This document shows, one piece after another, positions 35,949-45,957 of a DNA stretch of 49,740 nt. The notes below the pieces were generated by a model. It was given only the letters and a program-made list of their open reading frames with translations, was not told the origin of the DNA and searched no databases. A program made the translations under genes and the position numbers. Position 1 is the stretch's first letter; each line of letters begins with the position of its first letter. Source of the DNA: an uncultured Mucilaginibacter sp. (lineage in GTDB: Bacteria > Bacteroidota > Bacteroidia > Sphingobacteriales > Sphingobacteriaceae); contig CAIPPO010000185.1 of assembly GCA_903866915.1 (NCBI GenBank), positions 1-49,740 of the forward strand, written 5' to 3'.

Positions 35949-36764
35949 CTACCTGCCAAACGCCCATACCAAAAACTTAGGCAAAGCATAGGCCCAGGTA
36001 GCAGTGCTATGGGTGCCGCCTACCAATTCGAGGTATTGGATATCGGCCGGTCGGGTATATCCCCTGGCTTCAAGTTCTTTGATGATATCAACTGTATCGT
36101 CAATAGAATCGATGATACCGTTTTTATTGCGATCAGCTGTCTCGTCTTTAGTACCGGTTTGGAGCCAGAATTTAAGTTCGGGTTTATGCTTTGATTCACG
36201 AATCACGTGGTGCATGATGCGGTCGGCTTCGGTATAACCTTTACCCAATTCTTTGCTGCGCCACCAAAAGGAACCTGAAAATACGCCGGTCTTATTAAAT
36301 AGTTTAGGATGATGCCAGGCAATATCCATAGCCGATAATCCGCCTAATGAAAATCCAGCAAAAGCAGACGTGCCAAAATCGTCGATACCTATTTCTTTTT
36401 TAATCGCAGGTAAAAGTTCGAGGGTGATAAATTTGGAATAATTTGCCGCCTTTGACCCGCGGAATTTAAAATCAGGGTGACCGGCAACGCCGTATTCATG
36501 TAACCGATCATTGCCCGAATGCACTGCAGCTACAATCACCGGCTTAATCATACCGGTCTCAAATAATATACCAAGCGACTCAGCGAGTCTGACATTTTCT
36601 ATTTCCTGGCCGTCATTTAAAACAAGCAGGTTGAAAGGTTCAGCTGAAATCAGCTCCTCAGGCATTAATAAGGTGATCTTTACATCCCTTTTCAGGTATT
36701 CAGAATCAATAGCTATGGTATTTACATTTATCGTCATTTCACTCGCGGTCCGGCCCAAATACAT
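35949..36764 (-). CDS. Esterase D-like alpha/beta hydrolase
   Basis: A 271-residue alpha/beta hydrolase of the putative esterase family (Fes/esterase D-like). The nucleophile elbow is AGFSLGG (S139), the acid is probably in the TGTKDETADRNKNGIID region and the base is in GGTHSTATW. No signal peptide. An in-frame ATG at codon 10 is a possible alternative start. It is transcribed away from the second esterase at 36892, with 127 nt between them. It may serve the neighbouring amidoligase cluster, but nothing else links them. Confidence 0.78.
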   Translation of the reverse strand: MYLGRTASEMTINVNTIAIDSEYLKRDVKITLLMPEELISAEPFNLLVLNDGQEIENVRLAESLGILFETGMIKPVIVAAVHSGNDRLHEYGVAGHPDFKFRGSKAANYSKFITLELLPAIKKEIGIDDFGTSAFAGFSLGGLSAMDIAWHHPKLFNKTGVFSGSFWWRSKELGKGYTEADRIMHHVIRESKHKPELKFWLQTGTKDETADRNKNGIIDSIDDTVDIIKELEARGYTRPADIQYLELVGGTHSTATWAYALPKFLVWAFGR

Positions 36765-36891: not shown

Positions 36892-37599
36892 TTGATAGAA
36901 CAGTATCACAAATGGTATTCGCATAAATTGGGTCTCGACGTGGAAATGCTGGTATTCGGCGACCGCGGTTTCCCGGTTATTTTGTTTCCCACTTCGCAAG
37001 GACGTTTTTACCAAAATAAAGACGAAGGACTGATCGAATCTGTGGCTTGGTTTGTTAATGAGGGGCTGGTAAAGATCTATTGCCCCGATAGTTTCGACTG
37101 GCTAACCTGGTATAACAAGGGCGTGCATCCGGCTGAACGCGCCAGGAATTACAATATATACGATCAGATGCTTTACGAAGAACTAGCACCCTGGGCTATG
37201 CACGAAACCGGTAATAGTAAGGTGGCAACGGCGGGTTGTAGTTTTGGTGGATACCATGCAGCAAATTTTGCTTTGAAACACCCCGACCGCGCGGCGCACC
37301 TGTTTAGCATGAGTGGTGCTTTTGATGTGAAGCAATTTATGGATGGTTTTTATAACGACGACGTGTTTTATAATAATCCACCCGATTTTTTACCAGGCAG
37401 CAACCGGCACGAACTGTGGGAAATGAATATTATCCTGGGCACTGCCGAACACGATATTTGCCGGGGCGATAATGACAGCCTATCAACTATTTTGTGGGGG
37501 AAAAATATCAATCACTGGCTGGATGTTCGTGGCATTGGCGAGCACGACTGGCCAATGTGGCGGGCGATGTTTCCGCATTATTTATCTACGATAAAGTAG
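36892..37599 (+). CDS. Esterase-family alpha/beta hydrolase (TTG start)
   Basis: A 235-residue alpha/beta hydrolase with nucleophile elbow TAGCSFGGYHA (S117) and a likely histidine in GIGEHDWPMWR. It belongs to the esterase set whose members begin with a YHKWYSHKL-type strand and VFPTSQGRF-like loop. There is no in-frame ATG between the upstream stop (36853) and the conserved region, so translation probably starts at TTG 36892. The gene is the first of a same-strand series with ATP-grasp, GCS2-like and amidotransferase genes, and could hydrolyse or transfer the product made by those enzymes. Confidence 0.78.
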   Translation: MIEQYHKWYSHKLGLDVEMLVFGDRGFPVILFPTSQGRFYQNKDEGLIESVAWFVNEGLVKIYCPDSFDWLTWYNKGVHPAERARNYNIYDQMLYEELAPWAMHETGNSKVATAGCSFGGYHAANFALKHPDRAAHLFSMSGAFDVKQFMDGFYNDDVFYNNPPDFLPGSNRHELWEMNIILGTAEHDICRGDNDSLSTILWGKNINHWLDVRGIGEHDWPMWRAMFPHYLSTIK

Positions 37600-37602
37600 G
37601 TT

Positions 37603-37620
37603 GAGATTTGCGACGTGATA
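37603..37620. repeat. Intergenic motif GAGATTTGCGACGTGATA, copy A
   Basis: Begins 3 nt past the esterase stop. Closely related copies lie at 40007-40025 and, inverted, 40094-40112. Confidence 0.45.
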
Positions 37621-37672
37621 CAGAAGTTTTATAGTTTAAAATTTGAAATTATTTAATCAGATGTGCAGTTTT

Positions 37673-37718
37673 AGGTATCGAGATTGAGCCGGAGCAAATG
37701 GTCTCAATTCTCATACCT
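37673..37718. repeat. Imperfect 16-bp inverted repeat upstream of the ATP-grasp gene
   Basis: AGGTATCGAGATTGAG (37673-37688) and CTCAATTCTCATACCT (37703-37718) are imperfect complements around a 14-nt loop. The 37600-37751 gap otherwise holds no gene. It may be a REP-like element or an RNA hairpin in the ATP-grasp leader. Confidence 0.45.
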
Positions 37719-37751
37719 CAAATCTAACAGCTAACAGCTAAACAAAATACC

Positions 37752-38849
37752 ATGAAAAAAATAGGCATACTCTTCGGGCAGGAAAATTCATTCCCACATG
37801 CATTTGTAGATCGCATCAACCAAAAAGGCGAAAAAGATATTTCGGCCGAGTTTGTGCACATCGATAAGGTGATGCAAGCCGAGCCATCCGGTTATTCTGT
37901 CATTATTGACCGCATATCGCAGGATGTGCCCTTTTATCGTGCGATGCTTAAAAATGCCGCAATTAGCGGCACGGCGGTGATCAATAACCCCTTTTGGTGG
38001 AGTGCCGATGAGAAGTTTTTTAACAATGCCCTCGCTGTTAAAATTGGCGTACCTGTGCCTAAAACCGTCATCCTGCCGTCGAAAGATTTACCTGATGATA
38101 CTACTTCGCAATCATTCCGCAATCTGGCTTTTCCGCTGGATTGGGATGCCATATTCAATTACGTCGGTTTCCCGGCCTATATGAAGCCTTTTGATGGTGG
38201 CGGCTGGAAGGAAGTTTACAAACTGCACCATCAGGAAGAGTTCTTTGAAAAATACGATCTCACCAAACAATATGTAATGATGTTGCAGGAAGAAATTACT
38301 TTCGACGATTACTTCCGCTGCTATTGCATTGGAGGCAAACATGTGCGCATTATGCAATACGAGCCGCGCAACCCGCACCACCTGCGCTATGAACACGGCA
38401 AAGCGCCGGCCGAAAAGAAATTGCTCGAGACGGTAAAAAACTTCGTGATTAAACTAAATAAATATTTGGGCTACGATTTCAATACTGTTGAATTCGCCAT
38501 ACGCGACGGAGTGCCCTATGCCATCGACTTCTGCAACCCGGCTCCGGATGCAGAAGTAACCAGTGTTGGGCAGGACAATTTCGATTGGGTAGTTGAAACC
38601 GCGGCAGATTATGCGATTGAACGCGCCAAAAAACAAAAGGACGGTCGAGATAACCTAACCTGGGGAGAATACGTGAAGACTGGGGCCGCTGGCGTGCATT
38701 TGTTAGATAATGAGAAAAAGGTAGAAAAGAAAGCGGGAAAAAAGGTTGCAGACACCGTAACTGTAGCTCATAGTATTTTGGAAGAAGGCACAATAAAAGA
38801 AGAACCTGTTAAAAAAGCTGCAGCAAAAAAATTAGCTTCCAAAAAATAA
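37752..38849 (+). CDS. ATP-grasp ligase with Lys/Ala-rich tail
   Basis: A 365-residue ATP-grasp enzyme of the RimK/D-Ala-D-Ala ligase-like fold. The glycine-rich loop is PFDGGGWKEVYKL, the nucleotide-hinge region is in VMMLQEEITFDDYFRCY, and the metal-binding strand is NTVEFAIRDGVPYAIDFCNP. Such enzymes join a carboxylate to an amine through an acyl phosphate. The last 45 residues are unusual: low-complexity and basic (KKVEKKAGKKVADT, then VKKAAAKKLASKK), like an H1-type histone tail. It precedes the GCS2-like ligase by 56 nt. The substrate is unknown. Confidence 0.82.
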   Translation: MKKIGILFGQENSFPHAFVDRINQKGEKDISAEFVHIDKVMQAEPSGYSVIIDRISQDVPFYRAMLKNAAISGTAVINNPFWWSADEKFFNNALAVKIGVPVPKTVILPSKDLPDDTTSQSFRNLAFPLDWDAIFNYVGFPAYMKPFDGGGWKEVYKLHHQEEFFEKYDLTKQYVMMLQEEITFDDYFRCYCIGGKHVRIMQYEPRNPHHLRYEHGKAPAEKKLLETVKNFVIKLNKYLGYDFNTVEFAIRDGVPYAIDFCNPAPDAEVTSVGQDNFDWVVETAADYAIERAKKQKDGRDNLTWGEYVKTGAAGVHLLDNEKKVEKKAGKKVADTVTVAHSILEEGTIKEEPVKKAAAKKLASKK

Positions 38850-38905
38850 TTTGAAAAAGAGGGCTTTAAAACCTCGAACCAAATAAATAAAAACAGTTTA
38901 GCATT

Positions 38906-40003
38906 ATGAATGAATTTACCTTAGGCGTCGAAGAAGAATTTATGGTGGTCGACCCTGTGACGCGGGAGCTGCGGTCGCATGATCAAAAGATTGTTGAAGG
39001 CGCGCAAAAAATACTGGAGGATCAGGTCAAAGCCGAAATGCACCAGGCTGTAGTTGAAGTGGGCACCAGTATTTGCCGCAACACCACAGAAGCGCGTAAG
39101 GAAGTAAGTAAACTTCGTGGCACGGTAGCCCAGTTAGCTGGCGAATTAGGTCTCCGCATCGGTGCCGCAGGTACACACCCTTTCTCGCTTTGGGAGCACC
39201 AACTAATCACTGATCATCCGCGCTATTTCGAGATCGTGGATGAAATGCAGGATGCAGCACGCTCCAATCTTATTTTCGGGCTGCATGTGCATGTGGGTAT
39301 CCAGTCACGCGATCTGGCGGTTCATATCGCTAATCAGGTGCGTTATTTCCTGCCACACGTTTATGCATTATCCACCAATTCGCCTTTCTGGGAAGGACGT
39401 AATACTGGCTTTAAATCTTTCCGCACCAAGGTATTTGATAAATTTCCGCGTACCGGTATCCCCGATTATTTCAGTAGCATCGAAGAATATGACCGCTATA
39501 TCAAGTTGCTGGTTAAGACCAATTGCATCGATAATGCCAAGAAAATATGGTGGGATATTCGTGTTCATCCTTTCTTCGAGACCATCGAGTTCAGGATATG
39601 CGATTGCCCTATGTTAATTGATGAAACTATGGCATTTGTGGCACTTTTTCAGGCTCTTTGCGCCAAACTATACAAGCTACGCTTGCAAAACATGGCCTTT
39701 ATTACCTATAACCGGGCGCTGATCAACGAAAATAAATGGAGGGCAGCACGTTACGGGATAGATGGTAAAATGATCGATTTTGGGAAGGAAATGGAAGTCA
39801 ATACCCGTTCGCTGGTACTTGAATTGCTCGATTTCGTAGACGATGTAGTTGACGAGCTGGGCTGTCGCGATGACCTGCAATATGTACACAAGATACTTGA
39901 ACATGGCACTGGTGCCGACCGCCAGCTGGCCGTTTACGAACAAAACCATAACTTTGCCGACGTTGTTGATTATATTACAACGCAAACGCTTAAAGGAATA
40001 TAA
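38906..40003 (+). CDS. Carboxylate-amine ligase (GCS2/YbdK type)
   Basis: A 365-residue glutamine-synthetase-fold ligase of the YbdK/GCS2 family, in the group of glutamate-cysteine ligase-like enzymes. The N-terminal TLGVEEEFMVVDPVT is diagnostic, the middle has GLHVHVGIQSRD as the metal/ATP-binding strand pair, and WWDIRVHPFFETIEFRICDC is the characteristic second metal motif. Length fits. It most likely makes an amide bond to an amino acid side chain or gamma-carboxyl. In the same-strand run it follows the ATP-grasp gene and precedes the amidotransferase. Confidence 0.9.
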   Translation: MNEFTLGVEEEFMVVDPVTRELRSHDQKIVEGAQKILEDQVKAEMHQAVVEVGTSICRNTTEARKEVSKLRGTVAQLAGELGLRIGAAGTHPFSLWEHQLITDHPRYFEIVDEMQDAARSNLIFGLHVHVGIQSRDLAVHIANQVRYFLPHVYALSTNSPFWEGRNTGFKSFRTKVFDKFPRTGIPDYFSSIEEYDRYIKLLVKTNCIDNAKKIWWDIRVHPFFETIEFRICDCPMLIDETMAFVALFQALCAKLYKLRLQNMAFITYNRALINENKWRAARYGIDGKMIDFGKEMEVNTRSLVLELLDFVDDVVDELGCRDDLQYVHKILEHGTGADRQLAVYEQNHNFADVVDYITTQTLKGI

Positions 40004-40006
40004 AAT

Positions 40007-40025
40007 AGATTTGAGACGTGAAATA
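40007..40025. repeat. Intergenic motif, copy B
   Basis: AGATTTGAGACGTGAAATA begins 3 nt past the GCS2-like gene's stop. It shares GAxxTG...GACGTGA with copy A at the same position after the esterase stop. Confidence 0.45.
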
Positions 40026-40093
40026 GAAGACTTAAGAAATCCGATCTGATAGCTTAATGATTTAGTTTCAGAGACTTTGCAACCTATCGGTTC

Positions 40094-40112
40094 ATCTCAA
40101 ATATCACGTCTC
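40094..40112. repeat. Intergenic motif, copy C (inverted)
   Basis: ATCTCAAATATCACGTCTC is the approximate reverse complement of copy B and lies 24 nt before the amidotransferase gene. Copies B and C bracket the 40004-40135 spacer, which contains nothing else that I recognise. Confidence 0.45.
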
Positions 40113-40135
40113 CTATCTTATACCACAAAAAAATA

Positions 40136-40968
40136 ATGTCAGATAAACCAGAACTAAAAGTAGCGATACTCGATCTGTACGACGGCGTAGCTAACGAGGG
40201 CATGCGCGGTTTCCAGGAAATATTGAAAAGATACCGGGATAAGAACCAACTCAACCTTGACTACAGCATATTTGATGTACGCAGGAAATGCGAAGTTCCC
40301 AATCACAACGACTTTGATATATATATTGTTAGTGGAGGTCCGGGTAGCCCGCTGGATACCGAAGGCAGCGAATGGGAAAAGAAATATTTTAACCTGATCG
40401 ATAAGCTTGAAGATCATAACTTGTCAAATAATCTACAAAAAAAGCATGCTTTTTTTGTTTGCCATTCATTCCAGCTGATGTGCCGAAAATACAATTTGGG
40501 CGATATCAATATCCGACGATCACCATCTTTCGGGGTTCTACCGGTTCACCTCACCGAAGCCGGCAAAGCTGACCAGGTACTTGATAACCTGAAGGATCCT
40601 TTTTATACCGTCGACTCAAGAAGCTGGCAGGTGATTAATCCCAACCAAAAACGTTTTGAAGAACTGGGGATGCAATTACTGGCAATCGAAAAAGAACGTC
40701 CACATATTGAATTCCCCCGGGCTATGATGGCCATTAGGTTTAATGAATATTTTATATCGACGCAATTTCATCCCGAGGCTGATGCCAAGGGGATGAAAAA
40801 CTGGTTCTTAAGGAAGAAAAGAAAAAGGAAGTGGCTAACGAACACGGCATCGATAAATACAATGACATGCTCGAGCACCTGGATGATCCGGATAAAATAA
40901 CGTTTACCCAGGCTACTATTATTCCTAATTTTTTAGATCAGGCGGTTTTGAGTTGGCAGGAGGCCTAG
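40136..40968 (+). CDS. Class I glutamine amidotransferase with a frameshift near its end
   Basis: A GATase-1 domain protein with nucleophile C109 (FFVCHSFQLM) and the catalytic pair H212/E214 (QFHPEAD). The opened frame continues to 40900, but its last 28 residues after KNWF are implausible (RKKRKRKW and onward). From 40807, the frame shifted by -1 reads LKEEKKKEVANEHGIDKYND, then MLEHLDDPDKITFTQ and TIIPNFLDQAVLSWQEA, ending at TAG 40966-40968. That is clearly the true C-terminus. One missing base near 40805-40825, within a purine/A-rich run, explains it. It could be an assembly error, a mutation or slippage. Confidence 0.8.
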
Positions 40969-40974
40969 GCCTCT

Positions 40975-40990
40975 CCCGATGGGTATCGGG
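40975..40990. repeat. Diverged CCCGAT palindrome
   Basis: CCCGAT-GGGT-ATCGGG, a relative of the perfect palindrome at 2869-2886. It lies just past the corrected stop of the amidotransferase and could form a hairpin between it and the next gene. Confidence 0.5.
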
Positions 40991-41032
40991 GAAGTTGAAT
41001 TATTGAGGAGTTAGCTTATAGTTTTTTGCACG

Positions 41033-42226
41033 ATGGACGCTGCTGCACGAAAAATATTTAATGAGAAATTTTCGACGGAAAAATATGAAGCTTTCCTGCT
41101 TCGGCTGAATGATGGTCTGACAAAACCTGTTCAGTTTCGGGTGGCAGAGAGCCCAGTTTTCCTGACAGACGATTTCCGCGATAAGCTGCTGGCCGCTGGC
41201 AATGACATCATCGATGTGATCTTGCAGCCAGACTTCAAAGAACTGACTGAAAGAGCCATTCCCGAAAAATGGAAGGTAGCCAAAGAGAACGATCACCCAC
41301 ATTTTATCGCACTTGATTTTGGGGTTTGCAAAGATACCGGGGGCAATATCGTTCCAAAGCTGATAGAATTGCAGGGATTCCCATCGCTCTTTGGTTTCCA
41401 GGTGCATTTGGCTGATACTTATCGCCAGTCTTTTACTATCGACGACAATTGGGGGATATTCTTTAACGATATTAACAGGGAACAATACCTTGACCTATTA
41501 CAAGAAACCATCGTTGGGCCGCATCAACCCAAGGAAGTGGTTTTAATGGACGTTAATGCCCCTGAGCAAAAAACAGCTGTCGATTTTTATGTTACCCAAA
41601 AATACCTGGGCTTACCGGTATTGGCACTTAGCGACCTTATAGAAGAGAACGGGCAGTTATTTTACGAAGGCAACGGAAAATTACAACAAATCAAACGGGT
41701 ATATAACCGGCTGATTTTCGATGAAATTGAAAATGATCCGGACATTTTTGAAAAAGTTGTTGATATCAGAAAACCGCTGGATGTAGAATGGATAACACAC
41801 CCCAACTGGTTTTACCGCATCAGCAAGTTCACGATGCCCTTTCTTAAGGGCGATTATGTACCTAAAACACAGTTTTTGAATACGTTGAAGGTGGTACCTG
41901 CCGACCTTGAAAATTACGTCCTCAAGCCACTTTTTTCATTTGCGGGACAGGGGGTAATCATCGACATAAAAACAGAGGATATCGAAAACATTAAGGATCC
42001 GCAAAATTGGATTTTACAGGAAAAGGTGAATTATGAACCTGTATTGCAGGCACCGGATGGTGGCGTAAAAATTGAGATTCGCTTACTTTACCTTTGGCCC
42101 GATGGCGAAAATAGACCAACTCTTGCAATTAACCTGGCACGTTTAAGTAGGGGAAAAATGATCGGCGTGCGTTATAACAAGGATTTTGACTGGGTTGGTG
42201 GCACCGTTGCCTTCATGCGAAAGTAA
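41033..42226 (+). CDS. ATP-grasp-like ligase (second)
   Basis: A 397-residue protein with an ATP-grasp-type nucleotide site late in the chain: YVLKPLFSFAGQGVIIDI, then WILQEKVNYEPVLQAPDG and VKIEIRLLYLWP. The N-terminal part has a conserved-looking acidic segment (KLIELQGFPSLFGFQVH). The order resembles glutathionylspermidine synthase-like or permuted ATP-grasp proteins, but I cannot assign a subfamily. It starts 64 nt after the corrected end of the amidotransferase gene, on the same strand, and probably acts in the same pathway. Confidence 0.7.
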   Translation: MDAAARKIFNEKFSTEKYEAFLLRLNDGLTKPVQFRVAESPVFLTDDFRDKLLAAGNDIIDVILQPDFKELTERAIPEKWKVAKENDHPHFIALDFGVCKDTGGNIVPKLIELQGFPSLFGFQVHLADTYRQSFTIDDNWGIFFNDINREQYLDLLQETIVGPHQPKEVVLMDVNAPEQKTAVDFYVTQKYLGLPVLALSDLIEENGQLFYEGNGKLQQIKRVYNRLIFDEIENDPDIFEKVVDIRKPLDVEWITHPNWFYRISKFTMPFLKGDYVPKTQFLNTLKVVPADLENYVLKPLFSFAGQGVIIDIKTEDIENIKDPQNWILQEKVNYEPVLQAPDGGVKIEIRLLYLWPDGENRPTLAINLARLSRGKMIGVRYNKDFDWVGGTVAFMRK

Positions 42227-42588: not shown

Positions 42589-45500
42589 ATGGCCGATAAA
42601 CAGGTTTTTCAAACTGATACGCCGGGTAGGTGGACCCGTTTTAAGTGGCTTAGCCGCGGCCTGATCGTAGTTTTGGTGGCTGCTGTAATAGGTGCAGCCA
42701 TTACGGTTACTTCCAAACAATATCCTACTTTACCTAACCTAAATCCGGCTCCCAAAAAGTTATCACACGAAGAACTGGAACAGTTAAAACGTTCAACAAA
42801 ATACCGTGCTTTCAAAGTAGATACCGAAAAAATTGGCGCTTTACGCCGAAATCTGCGGCAGCACCAGCTCAAACACCCGAACAATAAGGACCGTATTAAC
42901 GCAGGATTTTACCGTGCATGGGAGCCCCAGGCCTATACGTCGCTGGTAGATCATATAGCCCGCCTGGACATGATTGTTAGCGAAGGCTTTACCGTGACCA
43001 GGAATGCGGATACAATTACAGCCAAAATTGATACCGGTTTAACTAACCTGAATAAAAAATACAACAAGCCGATTCTGATCTCGCTCTCTAATTATATTAA
43101 TTACGATAACCAGCACGGTGGTTTCGATAGTAAAGACATTTACCGGATCATCAAAAAAAAGAAGCTTCGGGCCAACTTTATAAACAGTATCGTTAAACAA
43201 CTGGCTAAATACCATTTCAGAGGTATAAATCTGGAGTTTGAAGCAATAAAAGACAGGAACGAGAAAAACTTTGTTGCCCTCGAAAAAGAAATTTATGCCG
43301 GGTTACATCCGCTTGGCTACCTGGTTACAACCGATGTAGTGCCCGAAGACGAACAATATGATATAGTTAAACTGCAACATTATAACGATTACCTGTTCAT
43401 TATGGCTATTGATGAGCACACGGAAGATAGCAACCCCGGCGATCTTTCAAACCAGCATTGGGTAGAAGAAATTCTGGACAATGTTTGTACAAAGATTCCA
43501 AGCGAAAAGGTCATTTTAACGGTACAGGGTGGCGGTTATGACTGGCCGGAAAGCAGCACTGGCAAGCCAGCCAGCTACCAGCAGGCAATCAGCTATGCGC
43601 AGGAAAACAAAAGTCCGATCAATTACGATCCGGCTTCAGCAAACCTGCATTATAATTACTTCGATCTTGACAGTCTTGAACATACTGTTTATTTTACTGA
43701 TGCTGCTACAAATTTTAATATCATCCGGATGGCCGACGATTGGGCAACGGGTGGTGTAGCTTTATGGCGCCTTGGTTCCGAAGATCCGCGGCTTTGGAGT
43801 TTCTTCCAGAAAAACCTTTCAATTGACTCCCTCAGAAAAACAGGCATCGACTTGAAACGATTGCAAACTGTCGGCTTAAATAACCGAATAGACTATGCTG
43901 GTGATGGCGAGGTGCTGGACCTGGTGACTACCCCTACCACCGGACAGATCAATGTGGCACTCGATACTATTAATTATTCGATAACCAACCAGCATTATAT
44001 TAAACTTCCTACCAAATATGTGATCAGGCGTTATGGCTATGCTCCGGGTAAAATCGTACTAACTTTTGATGACGGCCCCGACCCTGAATTCACACCGCGC
44101 ATTCTGGATATCCTAAAAAGGGAACATGTGCCAGCCGCCTTTTTTGTTGTGGGCTCAATGGCCGAAAAAAATATATCCATATTGAGACGCGAGTATGAAG
44201 AAGGGTATGAGATTGGTAATCACACTTTTTTTCACCCGGATATTTCAACAATCGGCATACAACGTGTTAACCTGGAATTGAACGCAACCCGAAAACTGAT
44301 CGAATCGGTTACCGGGCGTAGCACTATTTTGTTCAGACCGCCATTCAATGCTGACGCCGAGCCCCAAACGCTTGCCGAAGTTATTCCTGTCGCCGAAAGT
44401 CGTCGCCAGAGTTATATAACCATTGGCGAATCAATTGATCCCTGGGACTGGCAGCCAGGCGTTACAGCCGACAGCATCATTGCCCGAACCATCAAGCAAA
44501 AAGATGCTGGATCAATGCTTCTCTTACATGATGCGGGCGGCGACACCCGTGAAGAAACTGTTAGGGCTTTACCCGGCATTATACATTATTTTAAAAGTCA
44601 CGGCTACAAATTTACCACCATTGCAGATGTGCTGCACAAAACAAAAGCCGACCTGATGCCACCCATACGCGACGATGCTAACAGCGGTATTATGGGTACC
44701 CTTTATGATATTTTTGTACAGGGAACGTTTTATGGTAACTGGTTTATGCTCTACCTGTTCCTCTCGGCTATATTTCTGGCTCTGGGACGTATCGTTCTGA
44801 TCGCAGTTTTAGCAATCCGCCAATACTATGAAGACAAAAAGGAAAAAGCTGAACGCACCGAAGACGCAGTCCTTTATCCGGTAAGTATCATTGTTCCGGC
44901 GTATAACGAAGAAATTACCGCTATCAAAACGATCGAGAGCCTATTACTGATAGACTATGCTGAGTTTGAGATCATTTTTGTGGACGATGGATCGAAGGAC
45001 AAGACCTACGAAATGGTTAATAATGCCTTTGGAAACAACCCGCGGGTAAACGTATTAACTAAACCAAACGGTGGAAAAGCTTCGGCATTGAATTTCGGTA
45101 TCTCTCATGCCAAATATGATTTTGCAGTATGTATAGACGCTGATACGCAATTGAAAGATGATGCCATACGCCAGTTAATGATTTATTTTACTGATGATGA
45201 GATTGGAGCAGTAGCAGGTACGGTTAAAGTAGGAAACGAGACCAATATCATTACCATGTGGCAGTCGATCGAATACATTACGGCTCAAAATATGGATCGA
45301 CGTGCTTTCGACCTGATCAATAGCATAACCGTCGTACCGGGAGCGATTGGAGCCTTCCGCAAGGCTGCTATATTTAAGGCAGGCGCATTTACTTCAGATA
45401 CGTTAGCGGAAGATTGTGACCTTACGATGCGTATTCTGAAACAGGGCTATGTGATCAAAAACTGTGCTGACGCAATTGCCTATACTGAAGCGCCCGAAAC

Positions 45501-45957
45501 ACTGGGTGCATTACTGAAACAACGCTTTCGCTGGAGTTTTGGTGTCATCCAAAGCTTTTGGAAAAACAGGGATGCGCTATTTAATAAGAAATATAAATTC
45601 TTTGGTATGGTAGGTATGCCGAATATCCTGGTGTTCCAGATCATACTGCCCTTGTTCTCGCCATTAGCCGACCTGATGATGGTAATTGGTCTTTTTGGCG
45701 ATAAGCCATGGCACATTCTAACATACTATATTATTTTTGTGCTGGTTGATTTCCTGGTATCAATTATTGCTTTCCGGATGGAAAAAGAGAGCTACAAAAA
45801 GCTTATCTATATCATTCCTCAGCGCTTTATCTGGAGACAATTAATGTACTATGTCTTATTCAAATCGATTCGCAAGGCTTTGAAAGGCGAAATGAGCGGA
45901 TGGGGCGTATTGAAACGTACCGGAAACGTATCGGTAAAAGAGACCTTGAAATCCTAA
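42589..45957 (+). CDS. Trifunctional GH18-like / polysaccharide deacetylase / GT2 synthase
   Basis: An 1122-residue membrane enzyme. After an N-terminal helix (about 24-41), a GH18-like domain (about 90-430) keeps a glutamate in RGINLEFEAI where DxxDxDxE is usual. A NodB-type deacetylase follows: TFDDGPD with D494/D495, then HTFFHPD and FRPPFN. A membrane helix precedes a GT2 synthase domain with D799/D800 (VDDGSKD), DADTQ, EDCDLT and QRFRW (Q978, R981, W982), then C-terminal membrane helices. It probably polymerises and de-N-acetylates an amino-sugar polysaccharide, as PgaB plus PgaC would. The product is inferred. Confidence 0.88.
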   Translation: MADKQVFQTDTPGRWTRFKWLSRGLIVVLVAAVIGAAITVTSKQYPTLPNLNPAPKKLSHEELEQLKRSTKYRAFKVDTEKIGALRRNLRQHQLKHPNNKDRINAGFYRAWEPQAYTSLVDHIARLDMIVSEGFTVTRNADTITAKIDTGLTNLNKKYNKPILISLSNYINYDNQHGGFDSKDIYRIIKKKKLRANFINSIVKQLAKYHFRGINLEFEAIKDRNEKNFVALEKEIYAGLHPLGYLVTTDVVPEDEQYDIVKLQHYNDYLFIMAIDEHTEDSNPGDLSNQHWVEEILDNVCTKIPSEKVILTVQGGGYDWPESSTGKPASYQQAISYAQENKSPINYDPASANLHYNYFDLDSLEHTVYFTDAATNFNIIRMADDWATGGVALWRLGSEDPRLWSFFQKNLSIDSLRKTGIDLKRLQTVGLNNRIDYAGDGEVLDLVTTPTTGQINVALDTINYSITNQHYIKLPTKYVIRRYGYAPGKIVLTFDDGPDPEFTPRILDILKREHVPAAFFVVGSMAEKNISILRREYEEGYEIGNHTFFHPDISTIGIQRVNLELNATRKLIESVTGRSTILFRPPFNADAEPQTLAEVIPVAESRRQSYITIGESIDPWDWQPGVTADSIIARTIKQKDAGSMLLLHDAGGDTREETVRALPGIIHYFKSHGYKFTTIADVLHKTKADLMPPIRDDANSGIMGTLYDIFVQGTFYGNWFMLYLFLSAIFLALGRIVLIAVLAIRQYYEDKKEKAERTEDAVLYPVSIIVPAYNEEITAIKTIESLLLIDYAEFEIIFVDDGSKDKTYEMVNNAFGNNPRVNVLTKPNGGKASALNFGISHAKYDFAVCIDADTQLKDDAIRQLMIYFTDDEIGAVAGTVKVGNETNIITMWQSIEYITAQNMDRRAFDLINSITVVPGAIGAFRKAAIFKAGAFTSDTLAEDCDLTMRILKQGYVIKNCADAIAYTEAPETLGALLKQRFRWSFGVIQSFWKNRDALFNKKYKFFGMVGMPNILVFQIILPLFSPLADLMMVIGLFGDKPWHILTYYIIFVLVDFLVSIIAFRMEKESYKKLIYIIPQRFIWRQLMYYVLFKSIRKALKGEMSGWGVLKRTGNVSVKETLKS

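What the first reader, a model, noticed from the sequence alone, without database searches (positions are those of the whole stretch)
36892..42226. Amidoligase gene cluster of unknown product
Seen: a same-strand series of an alpha/beta hydrolase, an ATP-grasp ligase, a GCS2/YbdK carboxylate-amine ligase, a class I glutamine amidotransferase and a second ATP-grasp-like enzyme. Known: the two ligase folds each make amide bonds through acyl phosphates, and combinations of ATP-grasp and GCS2-type ligases have been proposed to make peptide-like metabolites or to modify proteins. Inferred: this cluster makes a short gamma-linked or branched amide compound, with GATase-supplied ammonia or gamma-glutamyl hydrolysis and an esterase for release. 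No transporter or standard NRPS parts are present.
Basis: partly seen in the sequence, partly recalled or inferred. Interest (0 to 1): 0.78.

Follow-up and report, generated by a model that had tools for sequence, protein, structure and literature searches.

The report
Conserved Bacteroidota amide-ligase gene kit
Six neighbouring genes, found in the same arrangement across many Bacteroidota bacteria and nearly always inherited together, appear to build (and take apart) an unknown small peptide-like molecule, using three different amide-bond-forming enzymes of which two belong to families that have no name yet.

Summary
The five genes exist, on one strand, at the stated coordinates, and the cluster is not a chance arrangement. 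It is larger than reported: a divergent esterase (35949-36764, minus strand) belongs to it. The order EST0<-/EST-GRASP1-GCS2-GAT-CP recurs in Sphingobacteriaceae and other Bacteroidota. In a 296-genome phylum sample GRASP1 and CP occur together in 89 of 92 CP genomes, including lineages where the genes are unlinked. GRASP1 has the RimK/LysX fold. CP has the glutathionylspermidine-synthetase/eukaryotic glutathione-synthetase fold but no sequence match to any solved protein. Neither reaches a Pfam or NCBIfam cut-off. GCS2 is a true YbdK-family ligase. All 15 CP-lacking genomes that keep GRASP1 and GAT carry another circularly permuted ATP-grasp (CP66). An M29 peptidase replaces GAT in some lineages and never co-occurs with it (6/37 against 0/42), which favours a hydrolase over an ammonia donor. 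No small precursor gene, NRPS part or defence match was found. Best reading: a three-ligase route to a gamma-glutamyl peptide/amine conjugate with a matching amidase, working like the glutathionylspermidine synthetase/amidase pair. The product is unknown. The window's GAT has a C-terminal frameshift not seen in relatives.

The parts
35949..36764 (-).
   Evidence: PF00756 96.2 bits; adjacent to GRASP1 or EST in nearly all relatives; triad Ser139/Asp207/His252 invariant across EST0 and EST
36892..37599 (+). EST: alpha/beta hydrolase, TTG start
   Evidence: PF00756 34.6 bits; 51-92% identical in relatives, same place upstream of GRASP1; absent from most Chitinophagaceae loci
37752..38849 (+). GRASP1: RimK/LysX-fold ATP-grasp ligase with optional Lys/Ala-rich tail
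   Evidence: Model pLDDT 76, best match RimK 5zct Z 20.5, rmsd 2.9, 257 aligned; K145, E247, D259, N262 invariant; no Pfam family
38906..40003 (+). GCS2: YbdK-family gamma-glutamyl-type carboxylate-amine ligase
   Evidence: NF010039 541 bits; YbdK structure 1r8g E 4e-60; GhExE signature present as GVEEE, residues 7-11
40136..40900 (+). GAT: class I glutamine-amidotransferase-like thiol amidase; the ORF ends early through a frameshift, the conserved C-terminus continues in another frame at 40810-40968
   Evidence: PF00117 36.4 bits; C109, H212, E214 invariant; intact at about 277 aa in 59 relatives
41033..42226 (+). CP: circularly permuted ATP-grasp ligase with glutathionylspermidine/eukaryotic glutathione synthetase fold
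   Evidence: Model pLDDT 89; YgiC 7uk8 Z 25.7, GspSA 2io8 Z 24.5, human GSS 2hgs Z 24.2; no sequence-level PDB hit; D95, E112, K265, K298 conserved

Best explanation
The cluster is one non-ribosomal amide-ligation pathway, inherited as a unit in Bacteroidota. Shown here: three amide ligases of three kinds (YbdK-type GCS2; RimK-fold GRASP1; GspS-fold CP or its substitute CP66) are co-inherited, usually with a thiol amidase of GATase fold (GAT, replaced in some lineages by an M29 peptidase) and one or two serine esterases. Inferred: GCS2 joins a gamma-glutamyl carboxylate to an amine or amino acid; GRASP1 adds an amino acid to that product or supplies the second building block; CP amidates the remaining carboxylate with an amine, possibly a polyamine, or an amino acid; GAT or M29 hydrolyses an amide of the product or an intermediate, so that a ligase and a hydrolase work as a pair as in E. 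coli glutathionylspermidine synthetase/amidase; EST0 and EST cleave an ester or thioester on the substrate or product. The substrates and the physiological role are not known.
For: Conserved order in many genomes and families, with operon-like spacing (GCS2-GAT median 7 bp). Phylum sample of 296 genomes: GRASP1 and CP both in 89, CP only 3, GRASP1 only 19; GRASP1 and GCS2 both in 90, 18 and 3 alone; GAT without GRASP1 once. At family level CP in 25, GRASP1 in 35 of 50, CP never in a family without GRASP1, Fisher 2.9e-6. Co-inheritance persists where GRASP1, GCS2 and CP are unlinked. All 15 CP-lacking genomes with GRASP1 and GAT have CP66; the six CP genomes tested and six other genomes without the kit or with a lone GRASP1 have none. 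An M29 peptidase sits between GCS2 and CP in 5 genomes that lack GAT and occurs in 6/37 GAT-lacking against 0/42 GAT-bearing CP genomes. Folds: GRASP1 = RimK, CP = YgiC/GspSA/GSS. YgiC and YjfC are annotated peptide-spermidine ligases (Pederick 2023 as cited in PMC12568646). Catalytic residues of GAT and the esterases are invariant. GS-fold carboxylate-amine ligases next to GATase-like thiol peptidases were read as peptide-metabolite synthesis in PMC2588565.
Against: No substrate evidence. CP lacks the R-x-D arginine and has Q for N of the E-x-N motif of GspS and YjfC (low-identity, motif-anchored alignment), so a glutathionylspermidine-like reaction is not assured. GAT could still be an ammonia donor: 31 of 37 GAT-lacking CP genomes have no M29 of this type. 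Some lineages keep GRASP1-GAT-CP without GCS2 (G077, G103, G197, G217), so a gamma-glutamyl step is not universal. Counts are not phylogenetically independent.
Confidence: 0.45

Rival explanations
1. GAT supplies ammonia to CP or GRASP1, so the product carries a primary amide (an osmolyte-like amidated peptide, in the manner of N-acetylglutaminylglutamine amide).
For: GAT keeps the class I GATase Cys-His-Glu triad and lies directly beside CP or CP66 in most lineages.
Against: 37 of 92 CP genomes lack GAT, and in six of them an M29 peptidase, a family not known to release ammonia from glutamine, is present, in five of the six in GAT's place.
Confidence: 0.2
2. The kit modifies a protein: GRASP1 acts as a RimK-type protein-glutamate ligase, and the other enzymes extend, cap and remove the side chain.
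For: GRASP1's closest folds are RimK and LysX/ArgX, which act on protein tails; many GRASP1 proteins carry their own Lys/Ala-rich tail.
Against: No partner target gene is conserved in the cluster and no small ORF is shared in the gaps; the GRASP1 tail is missing in most Chitinophagaceae.
Confidence: 0.15
3. The product is a low-molecular-weight thiol that replaces glutathione.
For: GCS2 (relative of gamma-Glu-Cys ligases) and a glutathione-synthetase-fold enzyme sit together.
Against: The bacillithiol enzyme BshC occurs in 291 of 296 sampled genomes with or without the kit, so there is no sign of a thiol gap to fill; this does not exclude an extra thiol.
Confidence: 0.1
4. A graspetide-type RiPP system: the ATP-grasp enzymes cyclise a small precursor peptide.
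For: GRASP1 matches the graspetide ligase PsnB fold (7dro Z 17.2).
Against: No conserved small ORF in the intergenic regions, no transporter; RimK, LysX and other ATP-grasp families score as high or higher.
Confidence: 0.03

Closest known systems
E. coli glutathionylspermidine synthetase/amidase (GspSA) and peptide-spermidine ligases YgiC/YjfC
   Same: CP has their fold (Z 24-26) and keeps the KP lysine and part of the metal site; pairing of a ligase with a thiol amidase
   Different: No family-level sequence match; R-x-D arginine and E-x-N asparagine not kept in CP; the amidase is GATase-fold; two further ligases and two esterases present
Cp1B, ATP-grasp ligase of fungal E-64 biosynthesis (PMC12568646)
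   Same: Same circularly permuted glutathione-synthetase fold (9cjn Z 22.9); stand-alone amide formation without NRPS
   Different: Fungal, couples epoxysuccinate to an amino acid; in the passages read no GCS2, RimK-type or GATase partner is named
YbdK / GCS2 carboxylate-amine ligases
   Same: GCS2 of the cluster is a member (NF010039, TIGR02050 cut-offs met)
   Different: E. coli ybdK has none of these genes as neighbours; here it is co-inherited with GRASP1 and CP
RimK / LysX-ArgX ligases
   Same: GRASP1 fold (Z 19-20.5)
   Different: Below the TIGR00768 cut-off; no LysW-like carrier gene found; invariant DFCN where these enzymes have E-x-N (motif comparison from memory of RimK)
Amidoligase gene-neighbourhood systems predicted by Iyer et al. 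2009 (from memory; paper not held) and the GS-fold ligase plus GATase-like peptidase pairs of PMC2588565
   Same: Ligase plus amidotransferase-like peptidase logic without NRPS
   Different: Whether this exact set is listed there could not be checked

Membership tests
YbdK-type GCS2 ligase (GCS2 gene) | Curated family cut-offs NF010039 / TIGR02050 | tested here: met
   541 against 371 and 305 against 176 bits
YbdK-type GCS2 ligase (GCS2 gene) | GhExE metal/ATP signature | tested here: met
   GVEEE/GIEEE, residues 7-11; G7, E9, E10, E11 invariant; signature as in PMC2588565
YbdK-type GCS2 ligase (GCS2 gene) | Gamma-glutamyl ligase activity | not testable with these tools
   needs an enzyme assay
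RimK family (GRASP1) | TIGR00768 cut-off | tested here: not met
   35.3 against 143.4 bits
RimK family (GRASP1) | RimK/LysX ATP-grasp fold | tested here: met
   5zct Z 20.5, rmsd 2.9, 257 aligned
Glutathionylspermidine synthetase family (CP) | Fold | tested here: met
   7uk8 Z 25.7, rmsd 3.5, 344 aligned; 2io8 Z 24.5
Glutathionylspermidine synthetase family (CP) | Family profile cut-off / sequence relationship | tested here: not met
   CP_ATPgrasp_2 13.6 against 32 bits; no PDB chain at E<=1
Glutathionylspermidine synthetase family (CP) | R-x-D and E-x-N active-site motifs | tested here: not met
   A/V/T/Q-x-D and E-x-Q in CP against R-x-D and E-x-N in YjfC and Gss; KP motif kept
Class I glutamine amidotransferase fold (GAT) | PF00117 cut-off and Cys-His-Glu triad | tested here: met
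   36.4 against 22.8 bits; C109, H212, E214 invariant in 18 sequences
Class I glutamine amidotransferase fold (GAT) | Glutaminase activity channelled to a synthetase | not testable with these tools
   replacement by M29 argues against it
Putative esterase PF00756 (EST0, EST) | Cut-off and Ser-Asp-His triad | tested here: met
   96.2 and 34.6 against 22 bits; S139, D207, H252 invariant
Graspetide (RiPP) cluster | Conserved precursor peptide gene beside the ligase | tested here: not met
   no small ORF family shared by more than 4 loci in the intergenic regions
Known anti-phage defence system | PADLOC model match | tested here: not met
   0 hits for all five proteins

The most novel reading that the evidence does not exclude
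Bacteroidota make an undescribed class of gamma-glutamyl peptide-amine conjugate (a glutathionylspermidine-like cofactor or redox/stress metabolite) through a dedicated YbdK + RimK-fold + GspS-fold pathway with its own amidase, spread through about 25 of the 50 families sampled.
Probability: 0.25. Interest if true: 0.8.

Novelty: new variant of a known kind. Interest (0 to 1): 0.6.

Why it matters
A pathway kept as a unit over a whole bacterial phylum but without a known product is a large gap in the metabolism of common soil and freshwater bacteria. It contains two widespread ligase families that reach no Pfam or NCBIfam cut-off, ties the orphan YbdK family to a fixed set of partners, and makes a direct test possible (three purified ligases plus metabolomics of one deletion).

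Tried and rejected
PADLOC found no defence match. Plasmid searches with GRASP1 (window and divergent L147 form) and CP found nothing; CP66 found only distant relatives, several annotated glutathionylspermidine synthase family. Other phyla, including cyanobacteria, could not be reached: genome centres must be handles already held, all Bacteroidota, and the one genome-contig scan filled its 80 rows with Bacteroidota or probably misnamed MAGs. Small precursor or carrier ORFs: none conserved. Thiol replacement: BshC is nearly universal, so the test does not discriminate. The GH18-NodB-GT2 gene downstream (42589-45957) was rejected as a part: it is directly adjacent only in Mucilaginibacter-type loci, further off in some Pedobacter, and not found next to the kit elsewhere. 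Literature searches gave no description of this gene set in the held library; Iyer et al. 2009 is not held. The three CP genomes without GRASP1 were only partly examined: in G193 the contig continues, yet no GRASP1 was found beside GCS2.

Full report
OBSERVATION. Two things were missed. A second PF00756 esterase, EST0 (35949-36764, minus strand), is transcribed away from EST and is a core member. And GAT is frameshifted: the 59 relatives extracted are 272-290 aa long, while the window ORF leaves the family after about residue 225 and the conserved C-terminus (...FLDQAVLSWQEA) continues in another frame at 40810-40968. The window genome is a 237-contig assembly, so this may be an assembly error or a recent mutation; the Cys-His-Glu residues are upstream of it.

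CONSERVATION OF THE SET. Relatives of the same genus that have it keep EST0<-/EST-GRASP1-GCS2-GAT-CP, although 8 of the 24 sampled congeners had no GRASP1 match (some are incomplete genomes). Three main layouts occur: the full set (Sphingobacteriaceae, Cytophagales); EST0<-/GRASP1-GCS2 with GAT and CP elsewhere in the genome (several Chitinophagaceae); and EST-GRASP1-GAT-CP without GCS2 at the locus (L020, L091). Spacing is operon-like: GCS2-GAT median 7 bp, GRASP1-GCS2 52 bp, EST-GRASP1 75 bp. No small ORF family is shared in the gaps beyond four loci, so there is no sign of a precursor peptide or carrier protein.

CO-INHERITANCE WITHOUT LINKAGE. In 296 Bacteroidota genomes CP occurs in 92, GRASP1 in 108, GCS2 of this type in 93, GAT in 70 (weak hits removed by hand). 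GRASP1 and CP are both present in 89 genomes, CP alone in 3, GRASP1 alone in 19, neither in 185; GAT lacks GRASP1 once. Many of these pairs are on different contigs or hundreds of kilobases apart (for example G083: CP at 1229 kb, GRASP1 at 484 kb, GCS2 at 744 kb). Genomes are related, so the genome-level Fisher values (about 1e-52) are inflated; counted by family, CP is in 25 of 50 families, all of which have GRASP1, while 10 families have GRASP1 only (Fisher 2.9e-6; family tally made by hand).

REPLACEMENTS. The 19 GRASP1 genomes without CP are informative. Fifteen of them have GAT, and all fifteen carry another circularly permuted ATP-grasp (CP66; PF14403 E 8e-07, below cut-off), in nearly all cases by coordinates beside GRASP1 and GAT; the other four, with weak lone GRASP1 relatives, have neither. 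The six CP-bearing genomes tested have no CP66. In five genomes of four families an M29 peptidase (PF02073, 64.7 bits) stands between GCS2 and CP where GAT would be, and those genomes have no GAT anywhere. Across 79 CP genomes this M29 occurs in 6 of 37 without GAT and 0 of 42 with GAT. A peptidase in place of GAT suggests that the shared role is amide hydrolysis, not ammonia supply; this is an inference, and 31 genomes have neither.

FOLDS. The GRASP1 model (pLDDT 76, core better) matches RimK best (5zct Z 20.5, 257 aligned), then LysX/ArgX (Z about 19). The CP model (pLDDT 89) matches YgiC (Z 25.7), YjfC, GspSA (24.5), human glutathione synthetase (24.2) and the E-64 ligase Cp1B (22.9), with no PDB match by sequence even from a 26-member profile. 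YgiC and YjfC are annotated as peptide-spermidine ligases. A motif-anchored alignment shows the KP lysine, the upstream lysine, D95 and E112 kept, but the arginine of R-x-D replaced and the asparagine of E-x-N replaced by glutamine. CP is therefore described by fold and not filed as a glutathionylspermidine synthetase. GCS2 meets its family cut-offs and keeps the GhExE signature. Triads of GAT and of both esterases are invariant.

MECHANISM. The best-supported account is a non-ribosomal pathway with three amide ligations and a matching hydrolase. GCS2 would make a gamma-glutamyl bond (family inference), GRASP1 would add or join an amino acid (fold inference), CP would amidate a remaining carboxylate with an amine or amino acid (fold inference), and GAT or M29 would cleave an amide, a pairing that recalls the synthetase/amidase of E. 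coli (analogy). The esterases are placed by neighbourhood only. PMC2588565 reached a similar reading for other GS-fold ligases that neighbour GATase-like thiol peptidases. Rivals: ammonia donation by GAT, protein modification by GRASP1, a glutathione substitute (BshC is in 291 of 296 genomes, which neither helps nor excludes it), and a graspetide (no precursor).

NOVELTY. No description of this gene set was found in the held library, but the paper most likely to list it (Iyer et al. 2009, remembered) is not held. The kind, amidoligase clusters of unknown product, is known; the fixed combination, its phylum-wide co-inheritance, the two ligase families without models and the two replacements appear new. 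Other phyla were not sampled.

Noticed in passing
window 40805-40968 (+): C-terminal frameshift in GAT; relatives are intact. Assembly error or recent mutation not decided.
   Followed up: partly
window 42589-45957 (+): 1122-aa protein joining a GH18 domain, a NodB-type polysaccharide deacetylase and a PgaC-like GT2; next to the kit mainly in Mucilaginibacter.
   Followed up: partly
L110:8001-9467 (+): GRASP1 whose Lys-rich tail ends in an extra C-terminal stretch (IKGVGPKLEGILNKLGI...) that resembles a helix-hairpin-helix-type domain; many other GRASP1 proteins have Lys/Ala-rich tails, Chitinophagaceae ones mostly none.
   Followed up: no
L115, L116, L121, L132 beside CP: In one group of distant lineages CP is unlinked from the kit but sits beside an amidohydrolase (Amidohydro_3), in a conserved neighbourhood.
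   Followed up: partly
G047, G126, G199, G325: Genomes with a lone, divergent GRASP1-like protein and none of GCS2, GAT, CP or CP66; possibly a different function.
   Followed up: no
L181 (G193:C60): GCS2-GAT-CP present with no GRASP1 beside GCS2 or found elsewhere in a genome rated complete; exception to the co-inheritance.
   Followed up: partly
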